Position numbers and translations under genes: made by a program. The notes under the pieces were generated by a model, which was not told the DNA's origin, made no database searches, and saw nothing but the letters and a program-made list of their open reading frames with translations. DNA of 64,000 nucleotides from Liolophura sinensis (lineage: Eukaryota; Mollusca; Polyplacophora; Chitonida; Chitonidae): contig NC_088297.1 of NCBI RefSeq assembly GCF_032854445.1, positions 7,923,375 through 7,987,374 of the forward strand. The letters run 5' to 3'. Of the stretch, positions 5,501 through 52,600 are shown in pieces. How positions within the stretch are numbered: the stretch's first letter is position 1; each line of letters opens with the position of its first letter.

Positions 5501-8500
5501 CATCTCAGTGAAGCAGCACTAGATAAAAAAGCGTTGGAAATCCGTCCTGCGACAAGGAGGCACATTACATACACCCTAAGGATTCCCTCGTCGTCATATG
5601 ACTGAAAAATTGTTAAGTACAACGTAAAACCCCAAGCACTCACTCACTCACTCAAAACACCTCCCAAAAATCATTAGAACTCTCAGAATCAGGAAAAAAG
5701 TGAAGAAGATAGTCATGGACGAAATTTATGGTCACAGGGTTAATAAACCTGCGGATGGTCGTGGGTTTCCCCCAGGCTCTGCCCAGTTTCCATCCACCAT
5801 AATGCTGGTCGTCGTTGTATAAGTGAAATATTCTTGAGTATGGCGTAAAACACCAATCAAACAAATAAATAGAGCTCATTAGGTTATTAGACCATAGTAA
5901 GAGTTGATGTCTCATTGTTTTTACTTTCTTCATTACTCAGAGGCTGTGAATGCCTTGTGGGCCCTGTCATTTGATGATGAGAACAAGGAATTGATCATTC
6001 AGGAGCCTGGAATGATGAAGAGACTGATGGAGCTTGGCAAGTCGTCGGACGCAGACGTCAAGAAATCTGCACTGGGTATTATGTGGATATTAAGATATAA
6101 TCTGAGAGACAAGAAGGATTATCATGAATTAGGTGAGAAGATTATCAGGAATAAGGCCCTTGCAAGTTGTTCTTTAATAGTGTAGTAACACCAACTGATG
6201 ACTGATTGCAAATGTTTTCCGTCAAAGTCTTATCTCAAAGTTCTGCTGTTTTTTTTGTTTTTTTTATTTATTTTTTTTATTTGTATGCCAGCTTAGGATT
6301 TGTTTGTTTTCACCTTTTGTGGGGTCTTGGAGATTCATGTGAAAAAGTGATCAATTATGCTTGTGTGGCTTTTTGTGCTGTTGACCATTTGGAAAATAGC
6401 ACGATTTCTACCAATATGTTGTTCATTTCTGCATTTCACGTATGGGACATTTTGTCAGCAACTTGCCAATGGTTGGACCCAGACATGTCAAACTGCCCAG
6501 TTTCCTCCCCCTCCCCATCATATATCTGACTCCAGTGGTATGAATGGAAAATTCTTCGGTATGACATTAAACAAGACTGTGAAATCAACAACTGAGGCCT
6601 CCGTCTGGAAGTTTAATGGAGAATTTCTTTCAAATGACCATAAAATAAATTTATGTCAAATATGTTCACCCAGTTTATATACCTAATCAGAAAAAAAAAA
6701 AAACACTTTTGTTTTATTCAGGTAAAAACCTCATAGGGAAGAGGCTAAAGACATCTAAATCTCCCAGCAAAGAACCTGATAGTGGGGATTTTCAGCATGT
6801 AATGATCAGTTACCAATGGGACTCTCAGGACGTGTTACTGAAGGTACGAGACCAGCTAAGGACACAAGGCTACAATATCTGGATGGACGTAGACTGTATG
6901 GAAGGCTCAACACTTCAGGCTATGGCCGATGCTGTGGAGAACTCAGCTGCTGTGCTCATGTGTATGTCACGCAAGTACAAGGACAGCCCCAACTGTAGAG
7001 CAGGTAACATATGCACATTTATTGGAAGGGATAGGGTAGGGATGAGTGTGGGTGTGGAGGGTTTGTGAGGAGGAAATGTGAGTGTACAAGGTGCACCACC
7101 AGGCTTAGGCAAGTTACTGACAAAATTGTGTAATGTACAGATAAGCCACCACCGTATTTGTTAAAGAATGTTAGACTGTACAAATGGCTATATACAGGTA
7201 TTGTCAACCACTTAAGTGTGTTGTCACCAAGGCCGTATGACAGATATCAATAGAGAAAGTGAGTTCCCATCACTGGGACTGAACTCAATCCTGATTAAGG
7301 GATGAGGTCATCAGATTGAAAGATTGAGTGGTGAGAGTCATTCAGCAACTAGGCATGCTAGGATATACCAACATTTGCTTCAAACAAAGCCTCACAGTGC
7401 TAGGATATACCAACATTTGTTTCAGTCAAAGCCTCACAGTGTTAGGATACACCAACACTTGCTTCAATCAAAGCCTCACAGTGTTAGGACACACCAACAT
7501 TTGCTTCAATCAAAGCCTCACAGTTTTAGGATACACCAACATTTGCTTCAAACAAAGCCTCACAGTGTTAGGATACACCAACATTTGCTTCAATCAAAGC
7601 CTCGCAGTTTTAGGATACACCAACATTTGCTTCAATCAAAGCCTCACAGTTTTAGGATACACCAACATTTGCTTCAAACAAAGCCTCACAGTGTTAGGAT
7701 ACACCAACATTTGCTTCAAACAAAGCCTCACAGTTTTAGGATACACCAACATTTGCTTCAATCAAAGCCTCACAGTGTTAGGATACACCAACATTTGCTT
7801 CAATCAAAGCCTCACAGTGTTAGGATACACCAACTTGCTTCAAACAAAGCCTCACAGTTTTAGGATACACCAACATTTGCTTCAATCAAAGCCTCACAGT
7901 GTTAGGATACACCAACATTTGCTTCAGTCAAAGCCTCACAGTTTTAGGATACACCAACATTTGCTTCAATCAAAGCCTCACAGTGTTAGGATACACCAAC
8001 ATTTGCTTCAAACAAGGCCTCACAGTGTTAGGATACACCAACATTTGCTTCAAACAAAGCCTCACAGTGCTAGGATACACCAACATTTGCTTCAAATAAA
8101 GCCTCACAGTGCTAGGATACACAAACATTTGCTTCAATCAAAGCCTCACAGTGTTAGGTTTCACCAACATTTGCTGCAAACAAAGCCTCACAGTGCTAGG
8201 ATACACCAACATTTGCTTCAAACAAGGCCTCACAGTGCTAGGATACACCAACATTTTCTTCAGCCAAAGTCTCACAGACTGATTTCATGAGACATGTTTA
8301 ACATGGTTTTACATGACAAAGTTTTGTCTCGATAATTAGATGAAAAAAGTCCATAAATTCCCTCCCGGAAAAGAAGCACCTGCTCCAGTTGAAGCCCGTA
8401 CTTCAGATGGGCTCCACAGGGGCTTCAGAGACACTTCCAACAAGCTTAGAGTGTTTCTTCAGAAGCCCCGACTCTTATAAAGAGCTTCTCATGTGCTTCA

Positions 8501-11500
8501 TTTGAAGCGCCTGAGAACTGTAGGGACTTCAGAGACACTTCACAAACTTGAGCAATTTTTCCACTACCAGACAGACTAGCATGAGGGGCTTCAAGGGTGC
8601 TTCCCACTCTTAGACAAACTAGGAAAGAAATACATGTACAAGGGACTCATGTCCTTAATGCATATTGAACCTTCACTGTGCGAGTTGTGACTGACAATGC
8701 CGCTGGTAATTGCGATTTTAGGCGCACCAATCATTCAACCTATTTAGTCATTTTGAACAGTGGCATGCCTATCCATGAGGCAACACTATACATGTGATCA
8801 AATTAATATAGAAAGCGAAATTAAATCCCTAAATATAGGATAGAGGTCATTATGAAAAGTCTTCACGATTATGACGGGGGCGGAGCGAAGCATTTTAGAC
8901 GACTGAGTGGCTATTCCATGCAAAGCCACGCCCTCTCTTCCTGTCACTGGTCTGTCAGTGTGTCAACCCAACAGCCGTTGTTATATCACATGGTCGGTGA
9001 CCTGCCAATCAATGTCTGCTCACTCGGCGCACGGTTTCTTTGGCTCCGCCCCTGCTGTCTTCATGTGAAGACATTTTCTTCATCAATAAGTACTTTGGAA
9101 TTAAAGCCTGTGATTGGCTGAAAACACCATTGATAGCCAATCTGTCATCTAAGCAAACGATAACTATCTAGAAAATGAACAACCACATGACCTATGACCT
9201 ATGAACACATTATTTCATTTTACTTTATATGTTAAAATTTTTTTTTCTTCTCCTTTCAGAGGCTGAATACGCATTTCAGCGGCGAGTACCAATAATTCCT
9301 CTGCTGATGGAGGACGGGTATAAAGCAGACGGATGGCTGGGCATTTTACTTGGATCAAAGCTCTTCTTTGATTTCAGTGGTCGTTACAGTTTTGAGAGTC
9401 GATTTGACAGCTTGATAAAAGCACTGGGGGTCAAAGGTCAGACTGGAGAGCAAGGGGTCAAAGTCACGAGCCAATCAGATACGAGCAAGGGACAGGACAC
9501 TGCAGATAGTGCGGTAATCAAAGCTTATTATTTCATTTATCTAGAATCTTCAGCTTTTTATTTCTTTGTGGAATTTTCTTAACTATCCATATCAGGGTTA
9601 AATTTTAAGGAAAAAGGTTAGTAATACAATATACATGCAAAAGTTGTACACCAGGTGCACAGAGAATGATTTACATGTCCTGAAATTATTGACTCAGAAA
9701 TGCATGCAACTGAAGTCATTAGTCATTAGATATCCAAAAAGATGACCTGTCATCAGTAATCAGATTTATTGCTGTATAATTTATTCATTTATTTCTTTGA
9801 TCAGTGTTTTACGCCGTACTCAAGAATATTTCATTTATACAATGGCGGTAGGCATTATGGTGGGAGGAAACTGGGCAGAAAACCCACGACCATCTTCAGG
9901 TTGCAGGCAGACCTTCCCGAGGAATCGAGTGAGGAAGCCAGCATGAGCTGGACTTAAACTCACAGTGACCGCATTGGTGGGAGGCTTCTGGGTCATTATG
10001 CTGCACTAAGACGCTAACTAGCTGAGCCACGAGGCCCGACTACATAATTTAATATGAAGTGGATGAGCTTTTCGGAGGAACTGTACATGCACTCTGTTCA
10101 GCCTGTGCACGCGCTCAAAATTTTCCAATAAAATGGGTGCTTTGGTGCCTGTATGCTAGCCACACTTCAAACCCTGCATTGTATACTTTACTGTCCATAG
10201 CCACATCTGATTATTAGCTTGTGACTCACTGGAGACCGAGCGCATCAGCATTGCCTTGTAAAGATTTATTTATTTATTTGATTGGTGTTTTGCGCCGTAC
10301 TCAAGAATACTTCACTTCTACTACACGGGCAAGCTTTGTGGTGGGAGAAAACCGGGCAGAGCCCGTGAGAAACGTACGACTATCAGCAAGTTGTGGAGAG
10401 GAAGCCAGCATGAGCTGGGCTTGAACTCACAGGGACTGCATTGGTGAAAGGCTGCTGGGTCATTATGCTGGGCTAGTGCGCTAATCAACTAAGCCACGGA
10501 GGCCTCGCCTTGTAAACATGAAAGGTGGATGATGCATGTATGATTCAAATAGGGGGCATATTTATAGTTTTCCATATCTGTCACATACGGCCGGAGAGGA
10601 AGCCAGCATGAGCTGGACTTGAACTCACAGGGATCGCATTGGTGAGAGGCTCCTGGGGCTGTGCTAGCGCGCTAACCGACTGAGCCACGGAGGCCCCCCA
10701 AATTTGTAGTAAGGTTCATCACTCAGACAACTGAACTGTGGGTAAAAATACTTTTTATTTTTCAGATTTTATAAAGAGTGTTGAAAGGCATTCAAATATT
10801 TGAATACTATGGTGGGCTTTATGAGCCATACTGATGGTTTCTAGGAACTCACATCACATCACCTTTTTTTCCTGATGTTCAACAGAAGGAAGGAATTTTT
10901 GGGAACTTAATTTCAGTAATCTTTTACTCATGGGTAAAAGGAATTATTCCAACATTCGGTGCTGTGATTACAGTTGGAAAAGCATCTTGTGACATCCATA
11001 AAGTGGTCCATAAAGCCCACTTTACAATTCAAATGTTTGAATGCCTTTTCCCAAAAATCTGAAAAAATAAATGAAAGTATATTCATGCATAGTTTTAAGT
11101 GGTCGATTTTGTGATGCCTACTTTGATTTTTAGAAGCCTTCTTTAAAAAGTCAGTAGTCAGCAGGTCAAGGATTCCTGATTAGATGAAGAGACATCTGGG
11201 ACTGCTGGGTTCATTTGACTTACAGTATCGTAAAGAACTTATTTAAACATGTAATTGAAATTCTAAATGTTTGTCCATGCAATGAGGAAGATTTTACAGT
11301 TTGCATTTCAGTCATTATGTACAGCATGTAAACATATTTATGTTTTCAGGCAGGTAAAATTATTCCAGTGGTGAAAAGTAAAATTTTATCGGTGGCGCCC
11401 CCTGTGAGTGAAGAAAAGGCGAAAGTAGTTAAACTTTGGGGAAACAAAGAAATCACGTCTTGGCTCAAATCAAATAAACTTGACAGGTAAAGGAAAATAT

Positions 11501-19032: not shown

Positions 19033-20640
19033 ATGTGCTTGAGAAGAGGGGACTTGTCCATTGCATTCTTTGTTGTTTATTCTCCGTTGTCTACCGTGTC
19101 ATGTTCATTGCATTCTTTGTTGTTTATTCTCCGTTGTCTACCGTGTCATGTTCATTGCATCCTTTGTTGTTTATTCTCCGTTGTCTACCGTATCATGTTC
19201 ATTGCATTCTTTGTTGTTTATTCTGCGTTGTCTACCGTGTCATGTGCATTGCATTCTTTGTTGTTTATTCTCCGTTGTCTACCGTGTCATGTTCATTGCA
19301 TCCTTTGTTGTTTATTCCCTCGTTGTCTACCATCCCATGGCCATTGCATTCTTTGTTGTTTATTCTCCGTTGTCTACCGTATCATGTTCATTGCATTCTT
19401 TGTTGTTTATTCTGCGTTGTCTACCGTGTCATGTGCATTGCATTCTTTGTTGTTTATTCCCTCGTTGTCTACCATCCCACGGCCATTGCATTCTTTGTTG
19501 TTTATTCTCCGTTGTCTACCGTGTCATGTTCATCGCATTCTTTGTTGTTTATTCTCCGGTGTCTACCATCCCATGTCCATTGCATTCTTCGTTGTTTATT
19601 CTCCGTTGTCTACCACCCCATGGCCATTGCATTCTTTGTTGTTTATTCTCCGTTGTCTACCATCCCATGTTCATTGCATTCTTTATTGTTTGTTCTGTGT
19701 TGCCTACATTCCTATGTTCATTGCATTCTTTGTTGTTTATTCACTCGTTGTCTACCATCCCATCTTCATTGCATTCTTTGTTGTTTATTCTCCGTTGTCT
19801 ACATCCCATGTCCATTGCATTCTTCGTTGTTTATTCTCCGTTGTCTACCATCCCATGTCCATTGCATTCTTCGTTGTTTATTCTCCGTTGTCTACCATTC
19901 CATGTCCATTGCATTCTTCGTTGTTTATTCTCTGTTGTCTACCATCCCATGTCAATTGCATTATTCGTTGTTTATTCTCCATTGTCTACCATTCTATATT
20001 CATTGCATTCTTTGCTGTTTATTCTCCGTTGTCTGCCAACCCATGTACAGTGCATTCTTTGTTGTTTATTCCCTCGTTGTCTACCATCCCATGCCCACTG
20101 CATTCTTTGTTGTTTATTCTGCGTTGTCTACCACCCCATGTCCATTACATTCTTTGTTATTTTTTCTGCATTGTCTACTGTGTCACATGTCCATTGCATT
20201 CTTTGTTGTTTATTCGCCATAGTCTATTGTCCCATGTCCATTGTACTCATTGCTTTTCTCCATTGTCTATTGTCCCATGTCCATTGTACTCATTGCTTTT
20301 CTCCATTGTCTATTGTCCCATGTCCATTGTACTCACTGATATTCTCCTTGTGTCTATCACCTTATATAGTTTATTCCCCATTGTCTATCACACACTGCCC
20401 TTTACACTATATTCATTCTCCTTTGTGTTGCTATCAGACTATACCAGTGCTTTGTTGTTCGTTCTCCATCAAGCCCATTGTCTATTACCGAATGTTTCTT
20501 AGATTACTTTTTGTTTATTCTCCATTGTCTACCATCACGTGTCCATTGCATTTTCCCCCTTGTTTATCATCCCATGCCCTTTCTCTTTTTCTCCTAATAT
20601 CCTTTGCTTTCTTTGTTTTTTACTCTCGATTGCCTATCAC
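19033..20640 (+). repeat. 47-bp minisatellite between genes A and B (about 34 units)
   Basis: Unit starts TTCATTGCATTCTTTGTTGT and continues TTATTCTCCGTTGTCTACCG, with GTGTCATG or ATCCCATG ends. The 5' two thirds is regular; the 3' third (after 20220) is shortened and decayed. All three + frames stay open for 400-550 codons because the unit lacks stops and 47 is not a multiple of 3. Confidence 0.92.
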
Positions 20641-23072: not shown

Positions 23073-23719
23073 AACTAGAGATATAATCTTAGAACTGTTC
23101 ATTTTTTTTGGACTATTTTGCCAGAGTTCTGCTCTCTCGTACCTGAGAAATTTCAGCCTGGCCTTTATACTTTAGCAGCCTGCTGGTCTCAAAGATCATC
23201 AATCCATGTTAAAACAAAACCAACCTGTAATGGTGGCTGTGGTGAACATAAACAATTTACCATTGACTTTCCGCAGAAGCTACACTTGGAACTGCCATTT
23301 TGAAGCCTTCACCTGCTGCAATGTTTCACTGACACAGATGTGAGTTTTGCAGTGATTTAGATAGTGCCAAATGCTGGTAACGTTCAGGAGTGGGATCACC
23401 TTGTTTATGTGAAGGATGTGTTCACCATTACTGGGTGGTTTCATCAACATGGGACAATGATCTTCGTAGCTGGCAGGCTGCTAAGGGAAGGTGACGCTGC
23501 CAAATTATAGTCAACATATCTGTGCAAATTTGTACGTTTGCAAGAGACTTATGATAAGTATGAGAGGTGCAAGGTGGTAGAACTGCAGAACTGCTCTGAG
23601 AAAGTAAAAAGAAGATCTTGAACTGGAATGACGGTGAAGTCCTGTAAGATATAGTACACTTTTACTTGGTCCTAAAGCTTTCATTTCATATCTCCGTTGT
23701 AGGTGATAGTATCTGTATG

Positions 23720-24565
23720 ATGGGATCAAATTCAGCTAAAGCACGGGCTGTGCCCTGTCACATAGATGCTGAAGTGGAAGCAGGAATAGATCAAAGACTA
23801 CCCTCAAGCGGAAATATACAAACTGGTGTAGGCACTCCAGGCCAAACAGCTTCTACAGCACATGGAGCTGAAGGAAACGAACCTAGTAACTCTATTGTCA
23901 ACAGTGGGAGTGGAGTACCTGAACGTGACACATCATGTCAAGGGACAGTGAACCAAACCAAGCCAACAGAGCAAGATGCACAGAACAGTAAAGTATCGGC
24001 AAAAACTGACTTGACTAACAGTAATCCTCAACGTTCACAGAGTGCCACGAACATTACCATCAAGACAGAGGAAGAAAATGGTGGAGAGAATGGATCTAAA
24101 GAGGTGTCGGAAGAAAAGATTCAGGCAAAAATTGAAGAAGGCAAGCTTCTTGCGAAAGAAGTTGTTGAGAACTACACTTTTGATACGCACAGAGATAATC
24201 CGGTGGTGAGGAAAAATTTGCTTGAATTGAAGAAAATTTACTTCAGTTTCAGCCGTCTCTCTCCAGAAAAGGCTACCAAAAGCCGACGAGAACTGGGGAC
24301 GTTTTTTGTCGACAGTGGTTTAGTACCTATTCTCTGTGAGATAGTTAGGGATTACTTAACAACCGGCTGGCTGAATGATGATGGCAAACAGGATATGAAA
24401 ATATTTTACAGATTGTATAATGCTTTTATCATCCTGTTCAACTATTCTGACAGTACACCAGCCATTCCAGAGGCTTGTTCAGCCGTTCCGGGTTTCTTTG
24501 AGTTCATCAGAGAACAGCTGGTGACATTCCACAAGAAACTAACATCTGATGAAACCTTTCCCAAG
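23720..24565 (+). CDS. Gene B exon 1 (long disordered tail and first helices)
   Basis: An acceptor TAG at 23701-23703 precedes the exon, implying an upstream untranslated exon. Donor AAG|GTAAGA, phase 0. Helical part includes GTFFVDSGLVPILCEIV and WLNDDGKQDMKIFYRL, aligned with gene A. Confidence 0.85.
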
Positions 24566-24882: not shown

Positions 24883-27800
24883 AATAGATAAGATTTTTTG
24901 CTGGGGCTATAACTCAAACTGTTTTTCATGGACAGTTTTAATTTTTGGTTGATACATACATACACAAATGATGATCTGTCACGACTCACAATTGCTTGTT
25001 TCCTCGGTTGTCATGGTTACCAGATTGCCATGACCCTATGTATACTTCATAAATAGATATGATTTCATCTCTGGGCTATAACTTCAACAATTTTCCACAC
25101 AGAGTTTTAATTTTTGGTGGACCCATAGATACACAGATGGTGATGTGTCACAGCTCACATTTGTCCATTTTTGTGGTTTTCATGGTAACCGGATAGTCAT
25201 TTTCCTTACCTATACATGTACTACGTCAATAGATATGATTTTGAGTCCAGACTTCAATTCCAACTGTTTTCCACACAGAGTTTGAATTTTTGGTGGAAAC
25301 ATACATGTACATGTTGATACACAGATGACGATGCGTCATGACTCGAATTTATCCATTTTCCGGGTTGTCATGGTAACCAGATAGCCATTTATATGTACTA
25401 TATAGATAGAAATGATTTTGTGTCCGTGCTAGAACTCCAACAGTTTTCCGCATACAGTTTTCGTTTGCTGTGGACACATCTATTCACTTGCGTTGTTGTC
25501 ATGGTAACTACATACCTATCATCAACGCCCATGATGATTCCTCTCAGGGCTTATGCTCACCACAAAGCTGCTGGTATTCTTTTATACATTTCGTACAAGT
25601 GCATTTATTGTGGCATATGTTGTGTTCACCTGAACTCTTGTTTGGAAATAATTAGCCTTGAATGAATATCTTTATTAAATGTATGACGTATCTTTCAGTG
25701 GAAAGCAGCCCTCTCTTTCCCCTGTGAAATGTTTCAGAATACATGTGTTATTAATATTTATATATTTATTCCTTTGATTATTGTTTAATTAAGGCTGTAC
25801 TCCACAGAATTTTTCACTGATAAAGAGCCAGAAATAAGACCGCATCAAATTACCCCCGTTGAGGTCACCCTCCCATGTAAATGGCACATTTTGAGGAGTG
25901 CATAGCTTTGGTCAGGTCACATAAGGTTAGATCTGGTGGAAATTTGTTACCTTGACTTTATTTAGAAAAGTAGGTTTTTTCTAATTTTCATGTTTCTCAT
26001 TAGATAATTAATAACTGGAACTCCCACCCAGGGCTGGATCCTAGATTTACACTGCACATGTGGGTACAAATATGTAAGGGAGAGTTATTCAGTTGCTTGC
26101 CAAAGGCCAGTGGTTTTCACCTTTCTTGTACATAGACTGATGACACGATGACTAGGAACCTGCTGGGTTTCACACACAACAGTAGTTCTGTGGACTCAGC
26201 CTACAAGAGACTGCGTGAACTGGACTACACCACCATCCTGCTGCCCTACCTCACCGTGGATGTGGACAGATTCAAAATGTCCTCCATCCTATCCCTGGCA
26301 AACTTGGTGGATGAAGAGGAGAGTGCTCTGATAAATACCAGCGTGGAAGCCGTCAAATTCTTGCTTGTCAGGCTGGGGAAAGCTCTGCAGGATTCTGGGA
26401 GGAGAAATATGGGATGGTCAGCTAAGGAATTAGCACATGGTGAGCAGACAATTTACCTTAATACTAAGTGAGTTTGTGTGTGCGTGTCAACTTAAGATTG
26501 TATTGGGCGGTATGTGAGAGTGAGTGCTTGGGGTTTAACGTCGTTCTCAACAATTTTTCAGTCATATGACGACGAAGGAATCATTAGGGTGCATGTACGT
26601 GTAATGTGCCTCCTTGTTGCAGGACAGATTTCCACCGCTCTTTTATTTAGTGCTGCCTCACTGAGACGACTTACCGAAGGCAAGCAAGCCGCCCCGCCCG
26701 AGCCATTATACTGATACGGGTCAACCAGTCGTTGCACTATCCCCTTCATGCTGAACGCCAAGCGAGGAAGTTACAACTTCCTCTTTTAAAGTCTTAGGTG
26801 TGACTCGATCAAGGATTGATCCTGGATCTACCGGTCCCGAAGCGGATGCTCTACCAACTGTGCTATCCGGGCCGGTAGGGGGGTATGTGAGATGACATAC
26901 GTAATGTGTATGTATGTCAAAGTTTGTTTAGAGAAATCGCTGGTTCAATCCTGGCCTTAAACTGGGGATTATCATGATTGTTCTCATGGTCTGGGTTGCA
27001 AGAAGCTGTTGATTATCATTTGCCATGTAGTCTTACATGAATTTCGTGGGAGAACACTTGCCTTATACCATATACATGTACTTGTATACTGTATATGATG
27101 TATCCCACTTTGAAAAGTTGAGGCAGCATTAAACAAACAGGTACTAAAAGTTGTTGCTTCTAGAATGTAATACCTGTTTCCTCCAAGAAATCTGGTTTCC
27201 TCCAAGAAATCTGGTTTCCTCCACTCATAATATACTGGCCACCATCAAAAAGGTAAAAGTAAAAAAATCTTGAGAATGGTGATAAAACAACCATGAAATA
27301 AAAAAAAACCTCTACATGCTTGGTAGATTCGAGCTAGTGCAATACTAACATTGCGATAGAGGTGTTGCAGTGATGAGCTGGCGGCATGCCAATCCGAACC
27401 TTTAGCAGGTTTAGACAGGTTTGGTGGTATTACCCTTAACGTTGAAAATGTATCGAGAGAAATATCTTAAGAAAATATTTAAATACTGTAAGAATTTCTT
27501 CTCTACAACTATTCATTCTAATAAGCTATTTTACGTTGTTTAGTATTCAGTGCTGTCTCAGCATACATCTACCTCTAGGCTACAATTTATGTCTTTTCTC
27601 CCTCCTTTTGCATTCACATTTCATAGGGGTTGCAAAATTGGCAACAAACGACAACAACAAGAAAATGCTGGTAAGGGAAGGTGCTCTCCCTTTGTTGTTG
27701 AAACTCTCATATGTTGAAAATGAGGAAGAGCAGCAAGGTAAGTCAAATTCTTCCTGTACTCTAATAGTAAATGATTGAAAAACTCTCATGGATATTGAAA

Positions 27801-30800
27801 GTTTGGAATCAGTGAAACAAGTTCAGAATGTGAACCACTTTGAAATGAAGCTACAAGTGATGTAATATAAAAGCAATTTCCCTTATGATTTAGTGGCATT
27901 ACATATATCACCATCTTTCCAATATTGTATTATGCTGACTGAGAAATGCCTGGAGCTAAACGTAAATAAGGAGGTGTATCATAATGAAGTGGAGACATCA
28001 CTTCACACATCTGGTAAAAAGCTCAAAGGTTTCACAAGCTTTCGATCCACTTGCCGGGATCTTTCATGTCTTTGGCAAGTAGCTTGCATGTTTGTGAAAC
28101 CTTTATTACATTTTACCTTGTGATGTCTCGACTTCATTCTTATCATTGAACCCACGTATGACTATTCAGTCTAAAGTTTATGGTAATAAACTCGTGTAAT
28201 CACAAGCCCTTTAATAAACATTCATTTGGTTAAAAAATAGAGCAAAGTCTACCATTTCAGTATCTTGACGCCCACTAAGCTGTCGGCACAGTATAAATCT
28301 GATAGAAAGTGCATACAAGTACAGTACATGTGGCATATATGACATTCATGTAGCAGTGGCCATACAATTACTGTACATGTGGCATATATGACATACATGT
28401 AGAAGTGGCCATACAAGTACAGTACATGTGGCATATTTGACATATATGTAGAAGTGGCCATACAAGTACAGTACATGTGGCATATTTGACATACATGTAG
28501 AAGTGACCATACAAGTACAGTACATGTGGCATATATGACGTACATGTACCAGTGGCCATACAAGTACAGTACATGTGGCATATATGACATACATGTAGGA
28601 GTGGCCATACAAGTACAGTACATGTGGCATATTTGACATACATGTAGAAGTGGCCATACAAGTACAGTACAAGGCATATATGACATACATGTAGGAGTGG
28701 CCATACAAGTACAGTACGAGGCATACATGACATACATTGTAGGAGTGGCCATACAAGTACAGTACATGAGGCATACATGACATACATGTAGGAGTGGCCA
28801 TACAATTACAGTATATGTGGCATATATGACATACATGTAGCACAGCATCTAGTTTGATGATGCCCTTAGAAAATCACCATAACTCAGGGTTTAGGTTCAG
28901 CCTTGTGCATGTAGAAGGCAGTTTCATTAACAGCATATTTTAAAATTGACAACGGTGAAGCCTTAAAAATGACATGAAATGATACTATAACACAAAGAGT
29001 ATGGTTTTATATACAGGAAAATGAAGAAAGATGTGCCAAAACGGTGAGATAAAATTTTTCATTTTTGAGGCATGTTTTATATTTCTTAATAAACCTTAAA
29101 GAATATTCAGACCTGATGTTATCGATGAGCACACTTGAAATGAGGGAACAAGCCAGCGCCCCCAGTTCGGGTCCGCCTTCCAAAGCTGTTTTGCCAGCTA
29201 TCACCATTGACGTCATTTCTTGTACCGTTGTAGGTTAGGTCAAATTCTAAACTCCGTATAAAGAAGTGAAAACGAAAGGTGTCTTGTACTTTAAAGCATT
29301 ATCTGGCCTCAACCCATGGAACCCGAATGCTGTTCTCACACTTAGATATGACAGAGTTTTTGTTTGTTTTTTTTTTGTCATAATTTACAGAAGCTGTTAA
29401 GGCATTATGGGCATTGTCCTTTGATGATGAGAACAAGGATTTAATCATACAGGAACCAGGGTTGATTGACAGGTTGGTACAGCTGGAGAAGTCTCCTGGC
29501 GTGGAGGTGAGAAAAGCAGCACAGGGAGTTTTGTGGACTCTGCGATACAAGCTAAGAGACAAACAAGATTACCATAATATTGGTGAGTGCTTTCCAGGGA
29601 AGAAATTTTAATACTGTTGGGTCAGTTGTTCAAAAGTGTGCTAAAACCTAATCAGCCAGGATTAAATCTTAATACCGGTCTTGTTCTAATACAAGATCAA
29701 TTAAACTTATTACTGACATGACTGGTTGAAGTAAGTCCCAGGCTTAGCTGTTGGGCCCAGTTGTTCAAAAATTAGCTAATATTGGTTTTAGTTCACATTT
29801 TGTGTTTAAGATTTTAGCCAAATTCAGAAACCAATGCAGTTCCCCATTAATGGTAAGCCATTATTTTGGGGCTTACCATTAATGGGAAACTGCATTGGCA
29901 TTTTGGGAATAGATATACATCAAAAACCAGATTCATTAGAAAAAGAAAATCCTGTGATCAGTGAGGTTTTTTACACCTGTATGGTTGACATAGACTATTG
30001 GTCTGCATTGTCTCCATTGAACCCCTTTTATCCTGTCCAGATGATGTAAAATGGTTTTTTTGCAAGAACTGGAGAAAAAATTGTGACCTGTTGCCTTTGT
30101 AGAATTTGATTTGTCGTAAAATAATGTATTCAAACGCAAAGTAACAACAAATCTCCCAAACTTGACATTTGTTTGAGGGGATGTGACGTTTGTCAGGGCA
30201 GATAATCACACTTTCAAGGGAGGTAAATGCGCATTGCTCCCTTTGACGCATATACCTCTTATTGAAGACGACTTTGAAGGAGAAAAAAAGATAAGCGTTG
30301 GTCCAAAATATCTAGGGATGGACGGCTAACTTGAAACCAAAAGATAATTTCCTCTTGTCGGTTAAATGCATGAATGGTTTAAAAATTTTCTGGTCTTTTT
30401 ATGCCAGACTGAACAGGCGACAATGAGTGAACAAATTGAGATTACAAATTTGACAATCCGTTAGAACTTTATAGGCATGAGTACAACATACATGTATGTA
30501 TGTACCAGTCAGACAGGCAAATAAATAAATGCACTATTTCAACTCATTGCCCAATGGCCGCAATTATAATAGAGCAGATGACCACAGCAAAGTGGAAGGG
30601 TGACCACAGGAGGTCATGTAACAAGCAAGATCTGTATCAGATGAAGAATGGATTGATTCCACTGACTGTGTGTGATTACTCCGAACAAACAACTCTTTTA
30701 TTTTTGGCCTGTATTTGTAAGAGGTCAGGAGTTGATAGTAGTCCATCCTGATGGTTCTGTTGAGGATTCAAGTGGATACTTGTAGATTTTCCCCAAACAA

Positions 30801-33800
30801 ACAACTTTTTTATTTTTTGGCCTGTTTTTGTAAGAGGTCAGGAGTTGATATTAGTCCACCCTGATCATTCTGTTGAGGATTCAAGTGGATACATGTAGAG
30901 TTTCCCCAAAGAAACAACTTTTTCATTTTTTGCCTAAACTGTCTGTATTTGTATCAGGTGAGGAGTTGATAGAAGTCCACCCTGATCATTCTGTTGAGGA
31001 TTCAAGTGGATACATGTAGATTTTCCCCAAACAAACAACTTTGTCATTTTTGCCTAAACTGTCTGTGTTTGTATCAAATGAGGAATTGATCATTCTGTTG
31101 AGGGTTCAAGTGGATACATGTAGAGTTAGCCCAAACAAACAACTTTCTTATTTTTGCCTAAACTGTCTGTATTTGTATCAGGTGAGGAATTGATCATTCT
31201 GTTGAGGATTCAAGCAGATACATGTAGAGTTACCCCAAACAAACAACTTTCTTATTTTTGCCTAAACTGTCTGTATTTGTATCAGGTGAGGAATTGATCA
31301 TTCTGTTGAGGATTCAAGCAGATACATGTAGAGTTACCCCAAACAAACAACTTTCTTATTTTTGCCTAAACTGTCTGTATTTGTATCAGGTGAGGAATTG
31401 ATCATTCTGTTGAGAATTCAAGTGGATACATGTAGAGTTTCCCCAATGAAACAACTTTTTCATTTTTTGCCTAAACTGTCTGTATTTGTATCAGGTGAGG
31501 AGTTGATAGAAGTTCACCCTGATAATTCTGTTGAGGATTCAAGTGGATACATGTAGATTTTCCCCAAACAAACAACTTTGTCATTTTTGCCTAAACTGTC
31601 TGTGTTTGTATCAAATGAGGAATTGATCATTCTGTTGAGGGTTCAAGTGGATACATGTAGAGTTAGCCCAAACAAACAACTTTCTTATTTTTGCCTAAAC
31701 TGTCTGTATTTGTATCAGGTGAGGAATTGATCATTCTGTTGAGGATTCAAGCAGATACATGTAGAGTTACCCCAAACAAACAACTTTCTTATTTTTGCCT
31801 AAACTGTCTGTATTTGTATCAGGTGAGGAATTGATCATTCTGTTGAGGATTCAAGCAGATACATGTAGAGTTACCCCAAACAAACAACTTTCTTATTTTT
31901 GCCTAAACTGTCTGTATTTGTATCAGGTGAGGAATTGATCATTCTGTTGAGGATTCAAGTGGATACATGTAGAGTTTCCCCAAAGAAACAACTTTTTCAT
32001 TTTTTGCCTAAACTGTCTGTATTTGTATCAGGTGAGGAGTTGATAGAAGTCCACCCTGATCATTCTGTTGAGGATTCAAGTGGATACATGTAGATTTTCC
32101 CCAAACAAACAACTTTGTCATTTTTGCCTAAACTGTCTGTGTTTGTATCAAATGAGGAATTGATCATTCTGTTGAGGGTTCAAGTGGATACATGTAGAGT
32201 TAGCCCAAAGAAACAACTTTTTCATTTTTACCTAAACTGTCTGTGTTCGCATCAGGTGAGGAATTGATCATTCTGTTGAGGATTCAAGTGGATACATGTA
32301 GAGTTAGCCCAAAGAAACAACTTTTTCATTTTTTGCCTAAACTGTCTGTATTTGTGTCAGGTGAGGAGTTGATAGAAGTCCGCCCTGATCATTCTGTTGA
32401 GGATTCAAGCGGAGGAAAGGATGACGCAGAGGATGTCCAGCACGTGATGATCAGTTACCAGTGGGATTCGCAGGACGTCTTACTGAAGGTACGGGACCAG
32501 CTTAGGACACGAGGCTATAAAACCTGGATGGATGTGGACTACATGGGAGGCTCAACTCTGCAGGCAATGGCGGAGGCAGTGGAGAATTCCGCAGCTGTCC
32601 TCATCTGTATGTCACAGAGGTATAAGGACAGTCCCAACTGTAGGGCAGGTAGGTCAGAAAAGGTTGCCAGACAAAAGACTATAAGGTTTACAATGTCCTG
32701 GAAAATAGATTGATTCTTTTTGATAAAAACGGCGTAAAATATGTATCAAATATTGGATTCTTAGTCAGTGGATATCAGTGACGTCATATCTTGTTTCTTT
32801 GTAAAATCTGTTTTAAGACCAGTGAGGTCTGCATATATATTATATGCACTTGGAGTGAAGAACTTGGAGTGAAGAAGTCTAGCAGTATATTGTGTTTAGT
32901 GTCGGAAACCTGAATATCATCACTCATCATGATATGGTCAGAGCAAGCCACCATAAAATTTATTTATTTATTTATTTATTTATTTGATTGGTGTTTTACG
33001 CCGTACTCAAGAATATTTCACTTATACGACAGCAGCCAGCGTTATGGTGGGAGGAAACCGGGTAGGGCCCGAGGGAAACCCACGACCATCCACACGTTGC
33101 TGGCAGACCTTCCCACATACGGCGGGAGAGGAAGCCAGCATGAGCTGGGCTTGAGCTCACAGCGACCACATTGGTGAAAGGCTCCTGGGTCATTACACTG
33201 CGCTAGCTCGCTAACAGATCCATGGAGGCCCCCACCATAAAATTGGTTAAAAACATTCTACACATTAAAAAAAGTAAAGCAATTTCCCTGGATAGTGGTT
33301 ACCAATCTGCATCTTCATGTTAGTGTATTCTTTGTCTTCCTTTGTCCACTTTACTTGATCAGAGTATTTTGTGTCCTGCTCTGTTCACCTTTTGTTACTC
33401 ATGTTTATAGACCATCAACCTTGTGTGTACCTGGCCAGCTTGGAGCAGACCAGTTGTAACTAGTTACTGTTAAAAGGTTGGAAATGATAATCATACATGG
33501 ACATGGCCTCTCATCACTAAATGCATTCACAATCTTTAAAAAAAATAAGTCTGAAAAAGTTTATTCATGCATGATAACTCTTGACCATGAACGATTTTTC
33601 TTTTTTAAGCTTCTTCAAATTTATATAATGGCCATATACAACGTACGTGTATCGTTGAAAACACCAAATAATTACATACCAGTACCTTAATTCTTGTAAT
33701 TTTTGGAACACCTGGTCTGCTCTTTTTAAACAGTATACATGTTATTGTAGCAGGAATATTTAATTTATATCTTTCACGTGGCTAGTGCATCTAATGACCA

Positions 33801-36800
33801 ACATATTCAGGTCTTTACTTTCCAAAAAAGCTGAGAGAGAAATGTAATTCTTTAAGGGCCTCTGTGGCTCAGTTGGTTAGCATGCTAGTGCAGCGTAATG
33901 ACTGAGGAGCCTCTCACCAATGCTGTCGCTGTGAGTTCAAGTCCAGCTCATGCTGGTTTCCGCTCCTGCCGTATGTGGGAAGGTCTTCCAGCAACTTGCG
34001 GATGGTCATGGGTTTCCTCTGTGCTATGCCTGGTTTCCTCCCACTACAGTGCTGCCTGCTGTCGTATAAGTGAAATGTTCTTGAGTACGGGGTTAAACAC
34101 CAATGAAATAAAATAAATAAATGAATAATTTCTTGCTTTCAACACAACCTGTATCTGTCCTAAAAGTGAGAAGAAATAGGGTACATGTATTTTTGTTGTC
34201 ATGTTTTCCTTTTGTTTTTTCAGAGGCAGAATATGCCTTTCAGCGGCGAGTACCCATAATTCCTCTGCTGATGGAGGACAGCTACAGGCCAGACGGGTGG
34301 CTGGGCATTTTACTTGGGTCCAAGCTCTTCTTTGATTTCAGTGGGAAGTACAGTTTCGAATCAAAACTGGAAAGTTTACAAAAAGAATTAGGGCCAAAGG
34401 GCTTGACAGGAAAACAAGCGGTCAAAGGTGAAGGTCAAGCAGAGGTCAAAGGTCAAGGAAAACAAGAGGTCAATAAACCTAGAGATGAAGTGGACACAGG
34501 AGTGAGTGTAGTGTCATGGTTTTTTTTGATTATTTATTTATTTGAATGATGCTATACGCCGCACTCAAAAATATTTCATTTATACGATGAGGGCCAGCAT
34601 TATGGTGAGAGGAAACCAGGCAGAGCCCGGGTAAACCCACGACCATTCGCAGGTTGCTAACAGACTGTCCCACGTACAGCAGCAGAGGAAGTCAGCATGA
34701 GCTGGACTTGAACTCACAATGACTGCATTGGTAAGAGGCTCCTAGGACATTACGCTGTGCTAGTGCGCTAACCACCGAGCCACGGAGACACCTTGGTAAT
34801 TTATACATGTACATTTGCACCTGTATTTATATTAACTGAAGGGTCATGTCTAGCTTTCACAGTTTGTACAGAGCCTTGAAAACCTTGAAAAACCAGGAAA
34901 TTGGCATGACTTTTCCAGGCCATGCAAACCTGGAAAGTCAAGGGGGTTTGCAGCTGGCCTTAGCACATAAAGTTATCTCCCTTTGCTACCATACAGTATG
35001 AAAAAATATGGCTTTCCAGGATCCCATAGCTCCAAGTACAGGACGGTCACCTAGTACAATCCGACTTCATTGGACCTCATTTATAGTTATATAATAAAAT
35101 GTGCAGATTGGTATCACACATGGCAAAGTGTGTCAGTAACTTGCCAAATGTTGGCTGTTTAGCCCGGGCACTGGTTTCCTCTACCTGTAAGTGTGACGCG
35201 ATAATTGGAGTGAAGGCGTTTGATGGAATGACCTTGACATGTTAGTTTCTGCAGTGATAACTTCTGACGTTGATTGAAAACGTCACACAACAAACAGAGT
35301 TCAACAAAAGCTACATGGCAAGATATGTACACCCCATATGCATAACCCTTTAGTATATTGCTGTCCAAATAAAGATAATTTACAGTGTCAGTATTGAAAA
35401 TATCCCTCTGTATGATCAAGGTAAAACATTTCATTGATACTTTGTACAGATTTATTTATTTATTTATTTGATTGATGTTTTACTCTGCACTAGCGCGCTG
35501 AACAACTGAATCACGGAGACCCCCTGTACAGATATGATGTACAACAGTGCTTTGTATGTGTCAGTGTTGCTACATTTTGCAACACCATTTTCTATATAAA
35601 ATGATTGATTGATTGGTATTTTAAATCGTACTCATATGTTTTCATTTACACATGTAAGGGGGTCTCCGTGGCTCAGTGGGTTAGCGCACTAGTGCAGCGT
35701 AATGACCCAGAGGCCTCTCACCAATGCGGTCGCTGTGAGTTCAAGTCCAGCTCATGCTGGTTTCCTATCCAGCCATAAGTGAGAAGGTCTGTCAGCAACG
35801 TGCGGATGGTCATTGCTTTCCCCCGGGCTCTGCCTGGTTTCCTCCCTCCATAATGCTGGCCGCCGTCGTATGAGTGAAATATCCTTGAGCACGGTGTAAA
35901 ACACCAATAAAATACACATGTAAGACGGCAGTCGGGTTCACGGGTGGATAAAAGCAGAGGCCCAGAGTGAGCTATGTATCTCCGACAAACCTCTTGACTT
36001 GAAGTTGCATCCAAAATATTGAGAGCTGCCTTTTAAATATGCAACCCAATCATGCTCATTGGCCAAGGGCTGGGCAGTCATAGTGAACCAGAGTTTTAAT
36101 CATTCTGTGCCTTCAGTACCCCTCTGTATATATAGGAGATATGTGTCTTTATACATTTGTCTCTCAGCAATCACTAAGTAATCTCTCATGCTTATAATGT
36201 ACAACTCTGTTTCAGCCGGTAGCCGTCATACCTCCTGTGCAGAGTGGTGTTGTTGCTGCAGCTCCCCCTAGAGGATCTCTCAAAAGAAGGGAGGTAATCA
36301 AATGGGGAAAGAAGGAAGTTACAGCATGGCTGAAGGAAAAAAGCATAGAGAAGTGAGATGCCTTTCATGTTTAGCTTGTGGCAAAAAAAATTGTGGGAAA
36401 GTGCTGATGTACATGTATATGTGGTTAGTGAGCTGTTTTTTTAAACACTTTACCCCTCTCGTCCGTACGTGGACGTATCCAACCTGTGAATGGTCGTGAG
36501 TTTCTTGCTGTGTTTAGTACACATTTTTGGTTGTCAGCCTGTAAATTGGTTGGTTAGACTTTTTATTTAGCATATTCCTGTTGTTTTTCAGGCAACTCTG
36601 TATAAAACCGTGAGGGTCTTTCATAAGCATAACCATTGTTGAACTCTGCAAATCAATTTTTAATCTGGATTGCTTATGACGTCCTGGGAGGCGCCGTGTT
36701 AGAAAGAGGCGTCATTAGCATCCCACTCTTATATGGTTAAAAGATGAGAACAGATTTGATTGATGTTAGCGGAAATATGAGCGTTCTTAGATAGAAATAA

Positions 36801-38262: not shown

Positions 38263-38514
38263 ACCAGGCTATCTCTCCTGTAGTGGGTGACTCAATCAAA
38301 GAAATGCAGATGTCAGTTTTGCTGTTTGGTTTCATTGTTATTGCTACGGGGAATTTTACCTTTCCCTTTTGTAAATGTGTCAGCCACTGGTGGTGTGACC
38401 ATGTGGCTCTGAAGAAGATGGAGATGGGGAGATTTAACCGCGAAAATGTGTTATGCAATGTTTGGTAACATTGGTGTGATGCAGTTGTTGTTACATGTAC
38501 ATTCATGTATATAA

Positions 38515-39112
38515 ATCATATACAGACAAGCTCAGGTATATGAAACATTCATGTATATAAATCCTACAAAATCATATACAGACAAGCTCAGGTATATGAA
38601 ACATTCATGTATATTAATCCTACAAAATCATATACAGACAAGCTCAGGTATATGAAACATTCATGTATATAAATCCTACAAAATCATATACAGACAAGCT
38701 CAGGTATATGAAACATTCATGTATATTAATCCTACAAAATCATATACAGACAAGCTCAGGTATATGAAACATTCATGTATATAAATCCTATAAAATCATA
38801 TACAGACAAGCTCAGGTATATGAAACATTCATGTATATAAATCCTACAAAATCATATACAGACAAGCTCAGGTATATGAAACATTCATGTATATAAATCC
38901 TACAAAATCATATACAGACAAGCTCGGCTATATGAAACATTCATGTATATAAATCCTACAAAATCATATACAGACAAGCTCAGGTATATGAAACATTCAT
39001 GTATATAAATCCTACAAAATCATATACAGACAAGCTCAGGTATATGAAACATTCATGTATATAAATCATACAAAATCATATACAGACAAGCTCGGCTATA
39101 TGAAGGATGTGG
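38515..39112 (+). repeat. 56-bp minisatellite 3' of gene B (about 10-11 units)
   Basis: Unit TACAGACAAGCTCAGGTATA, then TGAAACATTCATGTATATAA, restarting at 38521, 38577 and 38633. It lies about 250 nt after the stop, so probably in the 3' UTR or immediate flank. Confidence 0.92.
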
Positions 39113-49600: not shown

Positions 49601-52600
49601 GCTACCATTTAAGCATTTACCTGAGCAGATAGACTAAAATCCTAACTGATGTAAACAGACAAGAAGCCGTATTTCACAGGTTACCTGTGACCATTTTGTC
49701 AGCTATTACGCCAGCTGTCGTCGCTACCATGGCTTCACGCTGTGTTTTATTATAATGCGTCCTTATTTTGGGAAAAAGAAGCCATGCTGTTTCATTTGTA
49801 AAATTCTGGAGTATGGCACAAACCAATACATAAATAAGTGAATAAATAAATAAATAAATAAATAAATGTTACCTTACCTGCCTGTTCCTCAACATCCCCC
49901 TTCTGACACAACTTCTGAAGGGGAACCAAGAAGCCGACATCAAGTAGAAGTTTTTTGCTGGAGTCACTGATCCCAAGTCGAGATGTAGCTACAGCGAGCA
50001 AAGAGTAATTGAGATTTAGTTATTTGGGTATTTGTATGCCAGTAACGTCTTATAAATTGCAATTTATATCACTGCATTTTTGCTTTATTTATTTATTTAA
50101 GCATTCTCATGAAAACCATGACAGTTGTAAGTTGACAAGGAGCCATATTTCGCCCGATTCAGGTGAATATATTCCAACTGTTACACTGTCGCTGTTGTTC
50201 TGGCTTTACTCTTCATTCTGCAAAATTAACAAATTAATTCTGCTCATTAATCAGTACTATCATATTCAATCATACACATGGCCGAGCTAAGTCAGATATA
50301 CATGATACAAGTCCACATGACATTTTAGGTCAGACGTCCGTATGACTCTAAGTATAGGGTTATACGCCTGGAATATACCTATGTATGCATATGTCCACAT
50401 GACACTTTAGGTCAGGCGTCTATATGAATCTAAGTATAGAGTTATACGCCTGGAATATACCTGTGTATGCATGTATGCTTGAGCTTTTTGACCTCACGCT
50501 TAACAATTTTTCAGTCATATGACGACAAGGAGTCATACCAGGCCTGTGCACATATACTGTATCTCCTTTTGGCTGGGCGATCCCATGCCGCCAAAGTGCT
50601 GCCGTCACTGAAGTATCATGCCGAAGTCACCCCACCCAGTCACATTACAGTGACACGGGATCAGCATTTTTCCCCCAGAAAAAAAACATTTGGGAAGCAT
50701 CTATGAATCAACTTTGACATTTTCAATTAAAAAGATGCACTTTTAAACTAATACATTTATGTTTAATGTTAACAGTGTCAATATACTTTACAATTTCTTT
50801 CCAAACCATGCTTAAATAATACCCCTAAAATAAAAGAACACCAAACTGGACAGTGAAACCACAGAAGGGACTACAGTGTGGAAACTCGCAAATGGTCACG
50901 TAAATGCTAACACAGTGGCTACTTATTCCTCGTCTGCACTTGCCCTCAGCCAACATCTACTCTCAGCCGACTTCATCTACCCTCAGCCAACAACACATGC
51001 CCTCAATCAACCGCAACTTCCCTTCATTACCTGTACCTACATTCCTCCAGCTCACCTACCCTTCTCTAACTGCATCTACCCTCCGCCAACTTAACCTACC
51101 CTCAGCCAACTTTACCTACCCTCAGCTGACTGCACCTACCCTCAACCAAGTACATGTGCCCTCATCCAAATGCATCTACCCTGCGTCATCACACCTACCC
51201 TCAGATAACTGCCTCTACCCTCTGCCAACTGCATCTATCCTCAACCAACTGAATCTACCCTCAGCCGACTGCACCTACCCTCAGCCAACTTTACCTACCC
51301 TCAGCCGACTGCACCTACCCTCAACCAAGTACATGTGCCCTCATCCAAATGCATCTACCCTGCGTCATCACACCTACCCTCAGATAACTGCCTCTACCCT
51401 CTGCCAACTGCATCTATCCTCAACCAACTGCACCTACCCTCAACCAACTGCCCCTACCCTCCGTCATCACACCTACCCTCAGATAACTGCCTCTACCCTC
51501 TGCCAACTGCCTCTACCCTCAACCAGCTGCCCCTACCCTCAGATAACTGCCTCTACCCTCTGCCAACTGCATCTACCCTCAACCAGCTGCACCTACCCTC
51601 AACCAACTGCCCCTACCCTCAACCAACCGCACCTACCTTCAACCATCTGCACCTACCATCCACCAACTGCACCTACCCTCAACCAACTGCCCCTACCCTC
51701 AACCAACTGCCCCTACCCTCAACCAACCGCACCTACCTTCAACCATCTGCACCTACCCTCAACCAACTGCACCTATCCTCAACCAACTGCCCCTACCCTC
51801 AACCAACTGCCCCTACCCTAAACCAACCGCACCTACTTTCAACCATTTGCACCTACCATCCACCAACTGCACCTACCCTCAACCAATCGCACCTATCTTC
51901 GACCATCTGCATCTACCACCCACCAACTGCACCTACCCTTAGCAAACTGCACATATCATCGGTCAACTTGATCAACCCTCGGCTAACTGCACCTACCCTC
52001 CACCAACTGAACCTACCCTCAGCCAAGTGCTTCCGCCAACTCCACCTACCTTCAGATATCTGCACATAAAATTCAAGTAGATCCAAATACCCTCAGCCAA
52101 CTGCATCTACTCTCCGCCAAACTGAACCTACCCTCAACCATCTGCACATACCTTCGACTAGTTGCCAATACCCCCGGCCAACTGCGCCTACTCTCAGCCA
52201 ACTGCACATATCCTTAACCAAATGCACTTGCCCCCAGACAATTGCGCCTACCCTCAACCAAGTACATGTGCCCTCATCCAAATGCATCTACCCTCAACCA
52301 ACCGCACCTACCTTCAACCATCTGCACCTACCATCCACCAACTGCACCTACCCTCAACTAATCGCACCTATCTTCGACCATCTGCATCTACCACCCACCA
52401 ACTGCACCTACCCTTAGCTAACTGCACATATCATCGGTCAACTTGACCAACCCTCGGCTAACTGCACCTACCCTCCACCAACTGAACCTACCCTCAGCCA
52501 AGTGCTTCCGCCAACTCCACCTACCTTCAGCTATCTGCAGATAAAATTCAAGTAGCTCCAAATACCCTCAGCCAACTGCATCTACTCTCCGCCAAACTGA

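What the first reader, a model, noticed from the sequence alone, without database searches (positions are those of the whole stretch)
30720..32648. Minisatellite built from the 3' splice site and first codons of a TIR exon
Thirteen clear units plus two decayed ones before exon 5 of gene B repeat its pyrimidine tract, AG and first ~18 codons, and the real exon is the last unit. Long units are spaced 537 bp (30958, 31495, 32032), so the array grew as multi-unit blocks. Long units end in TAG soon after the copied codons: splicing to one would give an ARM-only product without TIR. This could be a population-variable switch of TIR inclusion.
Basis: partly seen in the sequence, partly recalled or inferred. 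Interest (0 to 1): 0.8.

Follow-up and report, generated by a model that had tools for sequence, protein, structure and literature searches.

The report
Repeated intron of splice-site copies
Just before one exon of an animal ARM-TIR gene, the end of the intron and the start of that exon have been copied into a tandem repeat, leaving ten extra places that each look like both a start and an end of an intron; most of this may be harmless, but it makes a clean natural test of how cells choose between near-identical splice sites.

Summary
The array is real: 13 clear and 2 decayed units precede exon 5 (32361-32648) of an ARM-TIR gene, and two 537-bp blocks differ at 4 of 537 bases. Corrections: only 3 of 13 clear units carry the whole exon start; 10 lack 16 bp and are frameshifted; 3 have lost the AG. 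On paper, excision from any of the ten to exon 5 leaves the same mRNA. If exon 4 joins a unit first, 11 of 12 upstream acceptors give a stop without TIR; 32256 stays open (+35 codons, TIR kept). Most likely this is a recent, largely tolerated minisatellite seeded by a splice boundary, in a window where 16.6% of 40-mers have a local copy; 2 of 35 boundaries examined lie in such copies, no excess. No RNA or population data were available, so a switch is neither shown nor excluded. Precedents: potato RdRp duplication, human UBC, IFI6. New variant of a known kind.

The parts
23717..24565 (+). gene B exon 1 (first ATG-containing coding exon modelled)
   Evidence: open frame, donor AAG|GTAAGA
26136..26439 (+). 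gene B exon 2
   Evidence: like exon in gene A at 3785
27627..27737 (+). gene B exon 3
29391..29582 (+). gene B exon 4, donor TTG|GTGAGT
   Evidence: recalled-matrix donor score 4.52
30684..30957 (+). decayed 5' part of the array (units starting 30724 and 30837, AG|GTCAGG)
30958..31494 (+). 537-bp block 1: one long and four short units (30958, 31078, 31182, 31286, 31390)
31495..32031 (+). 537-bp block 2, 4 of 537 mismatches to block 1 (units 31495, 31615, 31719, 31823, 31927)
32032..32360 (+). partial third block: long 32032, short 32152 (AA|AT), short 32256; 32256 reads open and in frame into exon 5
32361..32648 (+). gene B exon 5 (first half of TIR); its own start CAG|GTGAGG also matches a 5' splice site; 288 nt, phase 1-1
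34224..34549 (+). gene B exon 6 (second half of TIR; 3' end uncertain)

Best explanation
A minisatellite was seeded by tandem duplication across the intron 4 / exon 5 boundary and then grew, lately by copying a 537-bp five-unit block. Because the exon starts with GTGAGG (the end of a split Gly codon and a Glu codon), each intact unit carries a match to both splice sites, CAG|GTGAGG (a dual-specific site). The array is most likely tolerated and not selected for: the mature mRNA is mainly the normal exon 4-exon 5 product, because exon 5 has its own downstream donor and coding body and because any excision from a unit's GT to exon 5's AG recreates an intact acceptor and the same mRNA (self-collapsing array). 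A minor share of transcripts probably joins a unit and becomes a truncated or 35-codon-extended product. Shown: anatomy, site identity, and the consequence of each junction on paper. Inferred: tolerance, dominance of the normal product, minor decoy use.
For: Anatomy. Exon start older than the array: paralogue exons A and C share the junction Gly and similar first residues and have no array at that boundary. Dual sites: 11 sites (10 units + exon) score at least 2.4 as acceptor and 6.8 as donor; 0 such sites elsewhere in the window on either strand (1 with donor 6.0, 3 with donor 4.5; matrices recalled, not trained on this species). Units' donor score 6.87 exceeds exon 4's 4.52 and exon 5's 6.23; acceptors 4.26 in nine units and 2.48 in 32256, against 4.14 for the real one. 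Silent collapse: 10 of 10 units. Background: 16.6% of 40-mers in the window have a local copy at 80% or more; four arbitrary 9-kb stretches give 7.8%; 2 of 35 homology-placed exon boundaries lie in such copies, so no excess at boundaries. Precedent: a potato RdRp tandem duplication across an intron-exon boundary gave a working new intron with its donor from the copied exon segment (PMC4974935, abstract and Results/Discussion section read); UBC dual-site tandem array (PMC10809524, abstract, passages and Discussion read).
Against: No transcript evidence exists here, so dominance of the normal mRNA is an assumption. The regenerated exon 4|unit junction TTG|GTGAGG scores only 3.29 against 6.87 for the next intact unit's donor, so once exon 4 has joined a unit, the donor-competition findings in flies (PMC8605326, passages) and repression of regenerated sites by the exon junction complex (PMC6224609, passages) predict inclusion, not silent removal. 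Upstream units are transcribed first and nine have acceptors as good as the real one. The matrix is crude: two AGs of intron 4 outside the array (30408, 6.9; 30041, 5.7) and one inside exon 5 (32618, 4.5) outscore the real acceptor, so scores alone cannot say which site is used. PMC10809524 reports dual sites to be under-represented among annotated splice sites (2.7- and 4.7-fold, abstract). Single-unit introns of 104-105 nt may be too short to be spliced (inference).
Confidence: 0.6

Rival explanations
1. Regulatory or population-variable switch: units compete with exon 5 and set the ratio of ARM-TIR to ARM-only protein, with array length varying between individuals.
For: 11 of 12 upstream acceptors give 505-540 aa products without TIR if read on unspliced; nine unit acceptors score as high as the real one; two blocks at 4/537 differences suggest recent, probably polymorphic growth. 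That an ARM part without TIR could act as an inhibitor, as in SARM1, is recalled.
Against: The array is absent at this boundary in paralogues A and C; three units have lost both AG and GT; ten units are frameshifted; silent routes exist; truncated messages may simply be degraded. The whole-genome DNA search showed no second copy of the array with which to test variation (that search skips some repeats).
Confidence: 0.08
2. Multi-step (recursive or nested) splicing: the ten dual sites are really used as stepping stones, so intron 4 is normally removed in pieces and the mRNA is unchanged. (Can hold together with the best explanation.)
For: The ten units and the exon start have the highest donor scores in and around intron 4; 10 of 10 excisions are silent on paper; dual sites are 3.1-fold enriched over expectation in human splice-junction data (PMC10809524, abstract).
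Against: Intron 4 is only 2.8 kb, not a long intron of the kind in which ratchet points are described (PMC8605326 passages); the regenerated donor after exon 4 joining is weak (3.29). The nested route does not need it, but is unproven.
Confidence: 0.25
3. Poison or in-frame cassette exons: acceptor of one unit and donor of a later one define cassettes of about 104-224 nt or more.
For: 78 acceptor-donor pairs tested; 3 (the 105-bp units 31390, 31927 and 32256) keep the frame and the TIR with 35 extra codons, 75 do not; exon-sized spacing with donors scoring above exon 5's own.
Against: No sign of selection on the units' coding sequence was found or can be claimed (few independent units); the extra 35 codons have no counterpart in the A and C exons.
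Confidence: 0.2
4. The reverse origin: exon 5 gained its first codons from a pre-existing intronic minisatellite.
For: Exon and units share 51 of 53 bases at best.
Against: Paralogues A and C have a like-placed junction Gly and similar first residues without any array there.
Confidence: 0.04
5. Assembly artefact that duplicated a short stretch.
For: The array is repetitive and no reads were available here.
Against: Units differ in ordered, block-specific ways (AA|AT, 16-bp gap, 104/105/120 bp).
Confidence: 0.03

Closest known systems
Potato RdRp gene PGSC0003DMG402000361, tandem duplication across an intron-exon boundary (PMC4974935; abstract and Results/Discussion section read)
   Same: Duplicated stretch spans intron 3' end and exon 5' end; branch site, pyrimidine tract and AG are copied; the new donor lies in the copied exon segment
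   Different: One boundary duplication there, 13-15 copies here; there RNA reads prove splicing and extra exonic sequence is kept; here the donor is at the very first exon base, so excision would leave nothing behind, and there is no RNA evidence
Human UBC polyubiquitin array of dual-specific AGGT splice sites (PMC10809524; abstract, passages and Discussion read)
   Same: Tandem units each with one AG|GT site able to act as 5' or 3' splice site
   Different: UBC units are in-frame coding monomers and usage is shown by RT-PCR; here the units are mostly intron, mostly out of frame, and usage is unknown
Human IFI6 (6-16) minisatellite with repeated splice donor sites (Turri et al. 1995; seen only as a cited title in PMC2572611 and PMC4526556 and one citing sentence in PMC4526556)
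   Same: Minisatellite that multiplies a splice site
   Different: Donor sites and, as recalled, a 12-bp unit there; acceptor/dual sites and 104-121-bp units here
Recursive-splicing exons and ratchet points (PMC6224609 and PMC8605326; passages read)
   Same: Exon 5 and each intact unit begin with a donor match directly after an acceptor
   Different: Those described in the passages are single sites in long introns or single exons; here ten copies sit in a 2.8-kb intron and the regenerated donor is weak

Membership tests
Dual-specific splice site array (UBC-like) | AG|GT in each tandem unit, matching both splice-site consensuses | tested here: met
   10 of 13 clear units plus the exon; 3 of 13 have lost it; the 2 decayed units have AG|GT with weak scores; matrices recalled
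[quoted passage not shown]
   no RNA data
Intron gain by tandem duplication across a boundary | Duplication includes 3' splice signals and exon start that supply a new donor | tested here: met
Intron gain by tandem duplication across a boundary | A new intron is spliced in mature mRNA | not testable with these tools
   no RNA data
Recursive-splicing exon (RS-exon) | Joining to the previous exon rebuilds a usable donor at the junction | tested here: inconclusive
   TTG|GTGAGG, score 3.29, below exon 5's donor 6.23; just above gene A's homology-placed donor at 7004, 3.22
Variable-number tandem repeat | Copy number differs between individuals | not testable with these tools
   one assembly only; no second copy of the array shown by the search
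ARM-TIR protein | Armadillo repeat and TIR domain in one gene | tested here: met
   PF00514 and PF13676 on the joined exon model of gene B; the joining is by homology and splice consensus, not by cDNA

The most novel reading that the evidence does not exclude
A natural array of ten near-identical dual-specific sites in front of a TIR exon is used in vivo: nested excisions collapse it silently (up to 2^10 routes to one mRNA), while escape events yield ARM-only or +35-codon TIR proteins at a rate that depends on array length, which varies between individuals.
Probability: 0.15. Interest if true: 0.8.

Novelty: new variant of a known kind. Interest (0 to 1): 0.45.

Why it matters
Splice-site choice among near-identical competitors is hard to study because natural sites differ. 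Here nine units share the same last 20 intron bases and the same donor match, a tenth has a slightly weaker acceptor, the units differ in distance from exon 4, in length and in frame, and three units are natural knock-outs (AA|AT) that serve as built-in controls. [quoted passage not shown] If unused, it shows how strongly exon context overrides near-identical 3' splice sites.

Tried and rejected
Whole-genome DNA search with the array: 4 rows, of which two are the array itself, one is gene A's TIR exon and one a distant TIR exon; no sister array or second haplotype was shown, but that search skips simple repeats and very common words. Survey for boundary arrays with kinase loci: 24 of the 30 loci cut out have open frames of at least 290 codons, so they served only for density (1.2%) and not for boundaries. 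PF13676 loci: 10 of the 14 cut out have open frames of at least 630 codons; only their tandem arrays were listed, one of which (L052, 481-641) holds a donor-like word on the strand opposite to its TIR and was not pursued. A solved-structure search with the TIR gave 0 matches at E <= 0.001. Paper searches for minisatellites that multiply acceptors (15 of 18, 8 of 8 and 2 of 2 papers listed) showed no matching case in the titles and abstract starts; these are word searches of an open-licence library, so absence from print is not claimed. Considered and rejected: inferring selection from the retained AG|GT, because units descend from few ancestors by block copying and so are not independent.

The 35 boundaries comprise 9 of gene A, 10 of gene B and 7 of gene C in the window (1 of 26 in local copies), and 9 from 8 of the 11 loci (1 of 9); the other 3 loci (L005, L006, L008) are genes B, A and C themselves. 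All were placed by homology and splice consensus, none by cDNA. An earlier pass with 19 boundaries of A and B, a few of them one base off, gave the same single hit. Half of each 40-mer is exon, so selection on coding sequence may itself lower this rate. The density for other TIR loci (8.9%) comes from 9 loci, some overlapping each other, and includes L016, which was fetched because it lies near L015; it is not a fair sample.
Full report
What was checked. The stretch in the finding was read directly, run through TRF and cut at the acceptor position. The array runs from about 30684 to 32360 and flows into exon 5 at 32361. There are 13 clear units (30958 to 32256) and 2 decayed ones (30724, 30837). 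The higher-order pattern is long-short-short-short-short, twice, then long-short-short-exon. The two full 537-bp blocks differ at 4 of 537 aligned bases; the long-plus-first-short part of the third block differs from theirs at 7 and 9 of 224.

Corrections to the observation. Only 3 of 13 clear units (30958, 31495, 32032) copy the whole exon start. The other 10 lack 16 bp and are frameshifted from the exon. Three clear units (31078, 31615, 32152) read AA|ATGAGG and have no acceptor AG. Ten clear units keep AG|GTGAGG.

The gene. Six exons of gene B were placed by reading frame, homology and splice consensus. The joined model is 689 residues with an armadillo repeat (PF00514, E 4.1e-10) and a TIR domain (PF13676, E 5.6e-24, residues 514-633). 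Exon 5 is 288 nt, phase 1 to phase 1, and carries about the first half of the TIR. Gene A (exons from 3785) and gene C (minus strand, exons modelled from about 49988 down to about 46050) are paralogues by sequence likeness; they were not scanned with Pfam. Their matching exons begin with the same split glycine codon and related residues (G-KNL in A, G-EKL in C, G-EEL in B) and have no array at that boundary. So the exon start is older than the array, and the array was built from it.

The missed feature. The exon starts GTGAGG, so nine intact units read TTTGTATCAG|GTGAGG and the tenth TTCGCATCAG|GTGAGG: an acceptor followed at once by a near-consensus donor. With generic matrices recalled from memory, the ten units score 6.87 as donors, above exon 4's own donor (4.52) and exon 5's donor (6.23); as acceptors nine score 4.26 and 32256 scores 2.48, against 4.14 for the real site. 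Homology-placed acceptors of genes A, B and C range from -1.0 to 13.3 in the same call, and two AGs of intron 4 outside the array (30408, 6.9; 30041, 5.7) plus one inside exon 5 (32618, 4.5) outscore the real one, so the matrix is crude and the real acceptor is only middling. Requiring acceptor 2.4 and donor 6.8 together, 11 sites are found in the array plus exon and 0 elsewhere in the window on both strands; with the donor at 6.0 there is 1 elsewhere, at 4.5 there are 3.

What each junction would do. If exon 4 joins a unit and reads on unspliced, 11 of 12 upstream acceptors (the 2 decayed ones counted) end in a stop without TIR (505, 523 or 540 residues), and one, 32256, stays open and adds 35 codons before the normal exon 5. 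Of 78 single-cassette combinations, 3 keep frame and TIR (the 105-bp units). Skipping exon 5 would stay in frame (593 residues of the model). Excision from any of the ten unit donors to exon 5's acceptor leaves that unit's acceptor directly before exon 5, so the final mRNA is unchanged: 10 of 10. This makes the array self-collapsing on paper. Any subset of the ten could be used as intermediates, that is up to 2^10 routes (arithmetic, not data). The order of events matters: the exon 4|unit junction TTG|GTGAGG scores only 3.29, so by the donor-competition results in flies (PMC8605326, passages) and the junction-complex repression reported for deuterostomes (PMC6224609, passages) an exon 4-unit joint made early would tend to include the unit.

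Is it more than chance? The array itself plainly is. Its position at an exon is not. In the window 16.6% of 40-mers have a local direct copy at 80% or more within 1.5 kb. Four arbitrary 9-kb stretches give 7.8% overall (0.0 to 20.1% each), 9 other TIR loci 8.9% and 30 kinase loci 1.2% (neither set is a fair sample). Of 35 homology-placed exon boundaries, 2 have such a copy: this one and a mirror case, L015, where the last codons and the donor of a death-domain exon (PF00531, E 7.3e-07) head an array of 86-bp units, with 5 of 6 units keeping GT. That is no excess over the window or the arbitrary stretches, so splice-boundary minisatellites look like a by-product of minisatellite-rich DNA. The sample is small, and coding selection may lower the boundary rate.

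Prior work. The closest case by geometry is a potato RdRp gene, where one duplication across an intron-exon boundary made a working intron whose donor came from the copied exon part (PMC4974935; abstract and Results/Discussion section read). The closest by logic is human UBC, a tandem array of dual-specific sites whose use was shown by RT-PCR (PMC10809524; abstract, passages and Discussion read); the same paper finds dual sites under-represented among annotated splice sites. IFI6 is a known minisatellite that multiplies donor sites (Turri et al. 1995, seen only as a cited title and one citing sentence). This case combines these in a form that I did not see in the papers listed: many copies, mostly intronic, with the dual site at the first exon base so that excision would leave no trace.

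Verdict. The array, its origin and its dual-site matches are well supported. Function is not. A tolerated, probably length-variable minisatellite with some splicing noise is most likely (0.6). Real stepwise use is plausible (0.25, overlapping). A selected switch is unlikely on present evidence (0.08). Results against a switch: no array at this boundary in paralogues A and C, mixed frames, three dead units, silent routes. Results against simple tolerance: donors scoring above exon 4's own, nine acceptors scoring as high as the real one, and a weak regenerated junction.

Noticed in passing
L015:342-799 (G000 contig C7, near 19563889): Mirror-image case: an 86-bp array made of the last codons and donor of a death-domain exon; the real exon end is taken to be the first of six copies (the last copy is partial) and 5 of 6 keep GT. 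A 40-bp array (842-1484) ends just before the next acceptor (1493).
   Followed up: partly
window, many places (e.g. 7359-8277, 19055-20329, 28312-28840, 38513-39104, 50957-52851, 57229-57958): The window is dense in minisatellites: 16.6% of its 40-mers have a local copy, against 7.8% in four arbitrary 9-kb stretches (one of which reaches 20.1%).
   Followed up: partly
window 3785-9500 (+) and about 49988-46050 (-): Two paralogous genes with ARM-like and TIR exons flank gene B, A on the same strand and C on the opposite one, with matching exon phases where checked.
   Followed up: partly
window 34224-34549: Gene B's last modelled exon runs into a SINE-like stretch before its stop, so its true 3' end is uncertain.
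   Followed up: no
G000, whole genome: PF13676 gives 117 TIR matches, dozens of them in open frames of more than 800 codons, which suggests a large expansion of TIR receptors.
   Followed up: no
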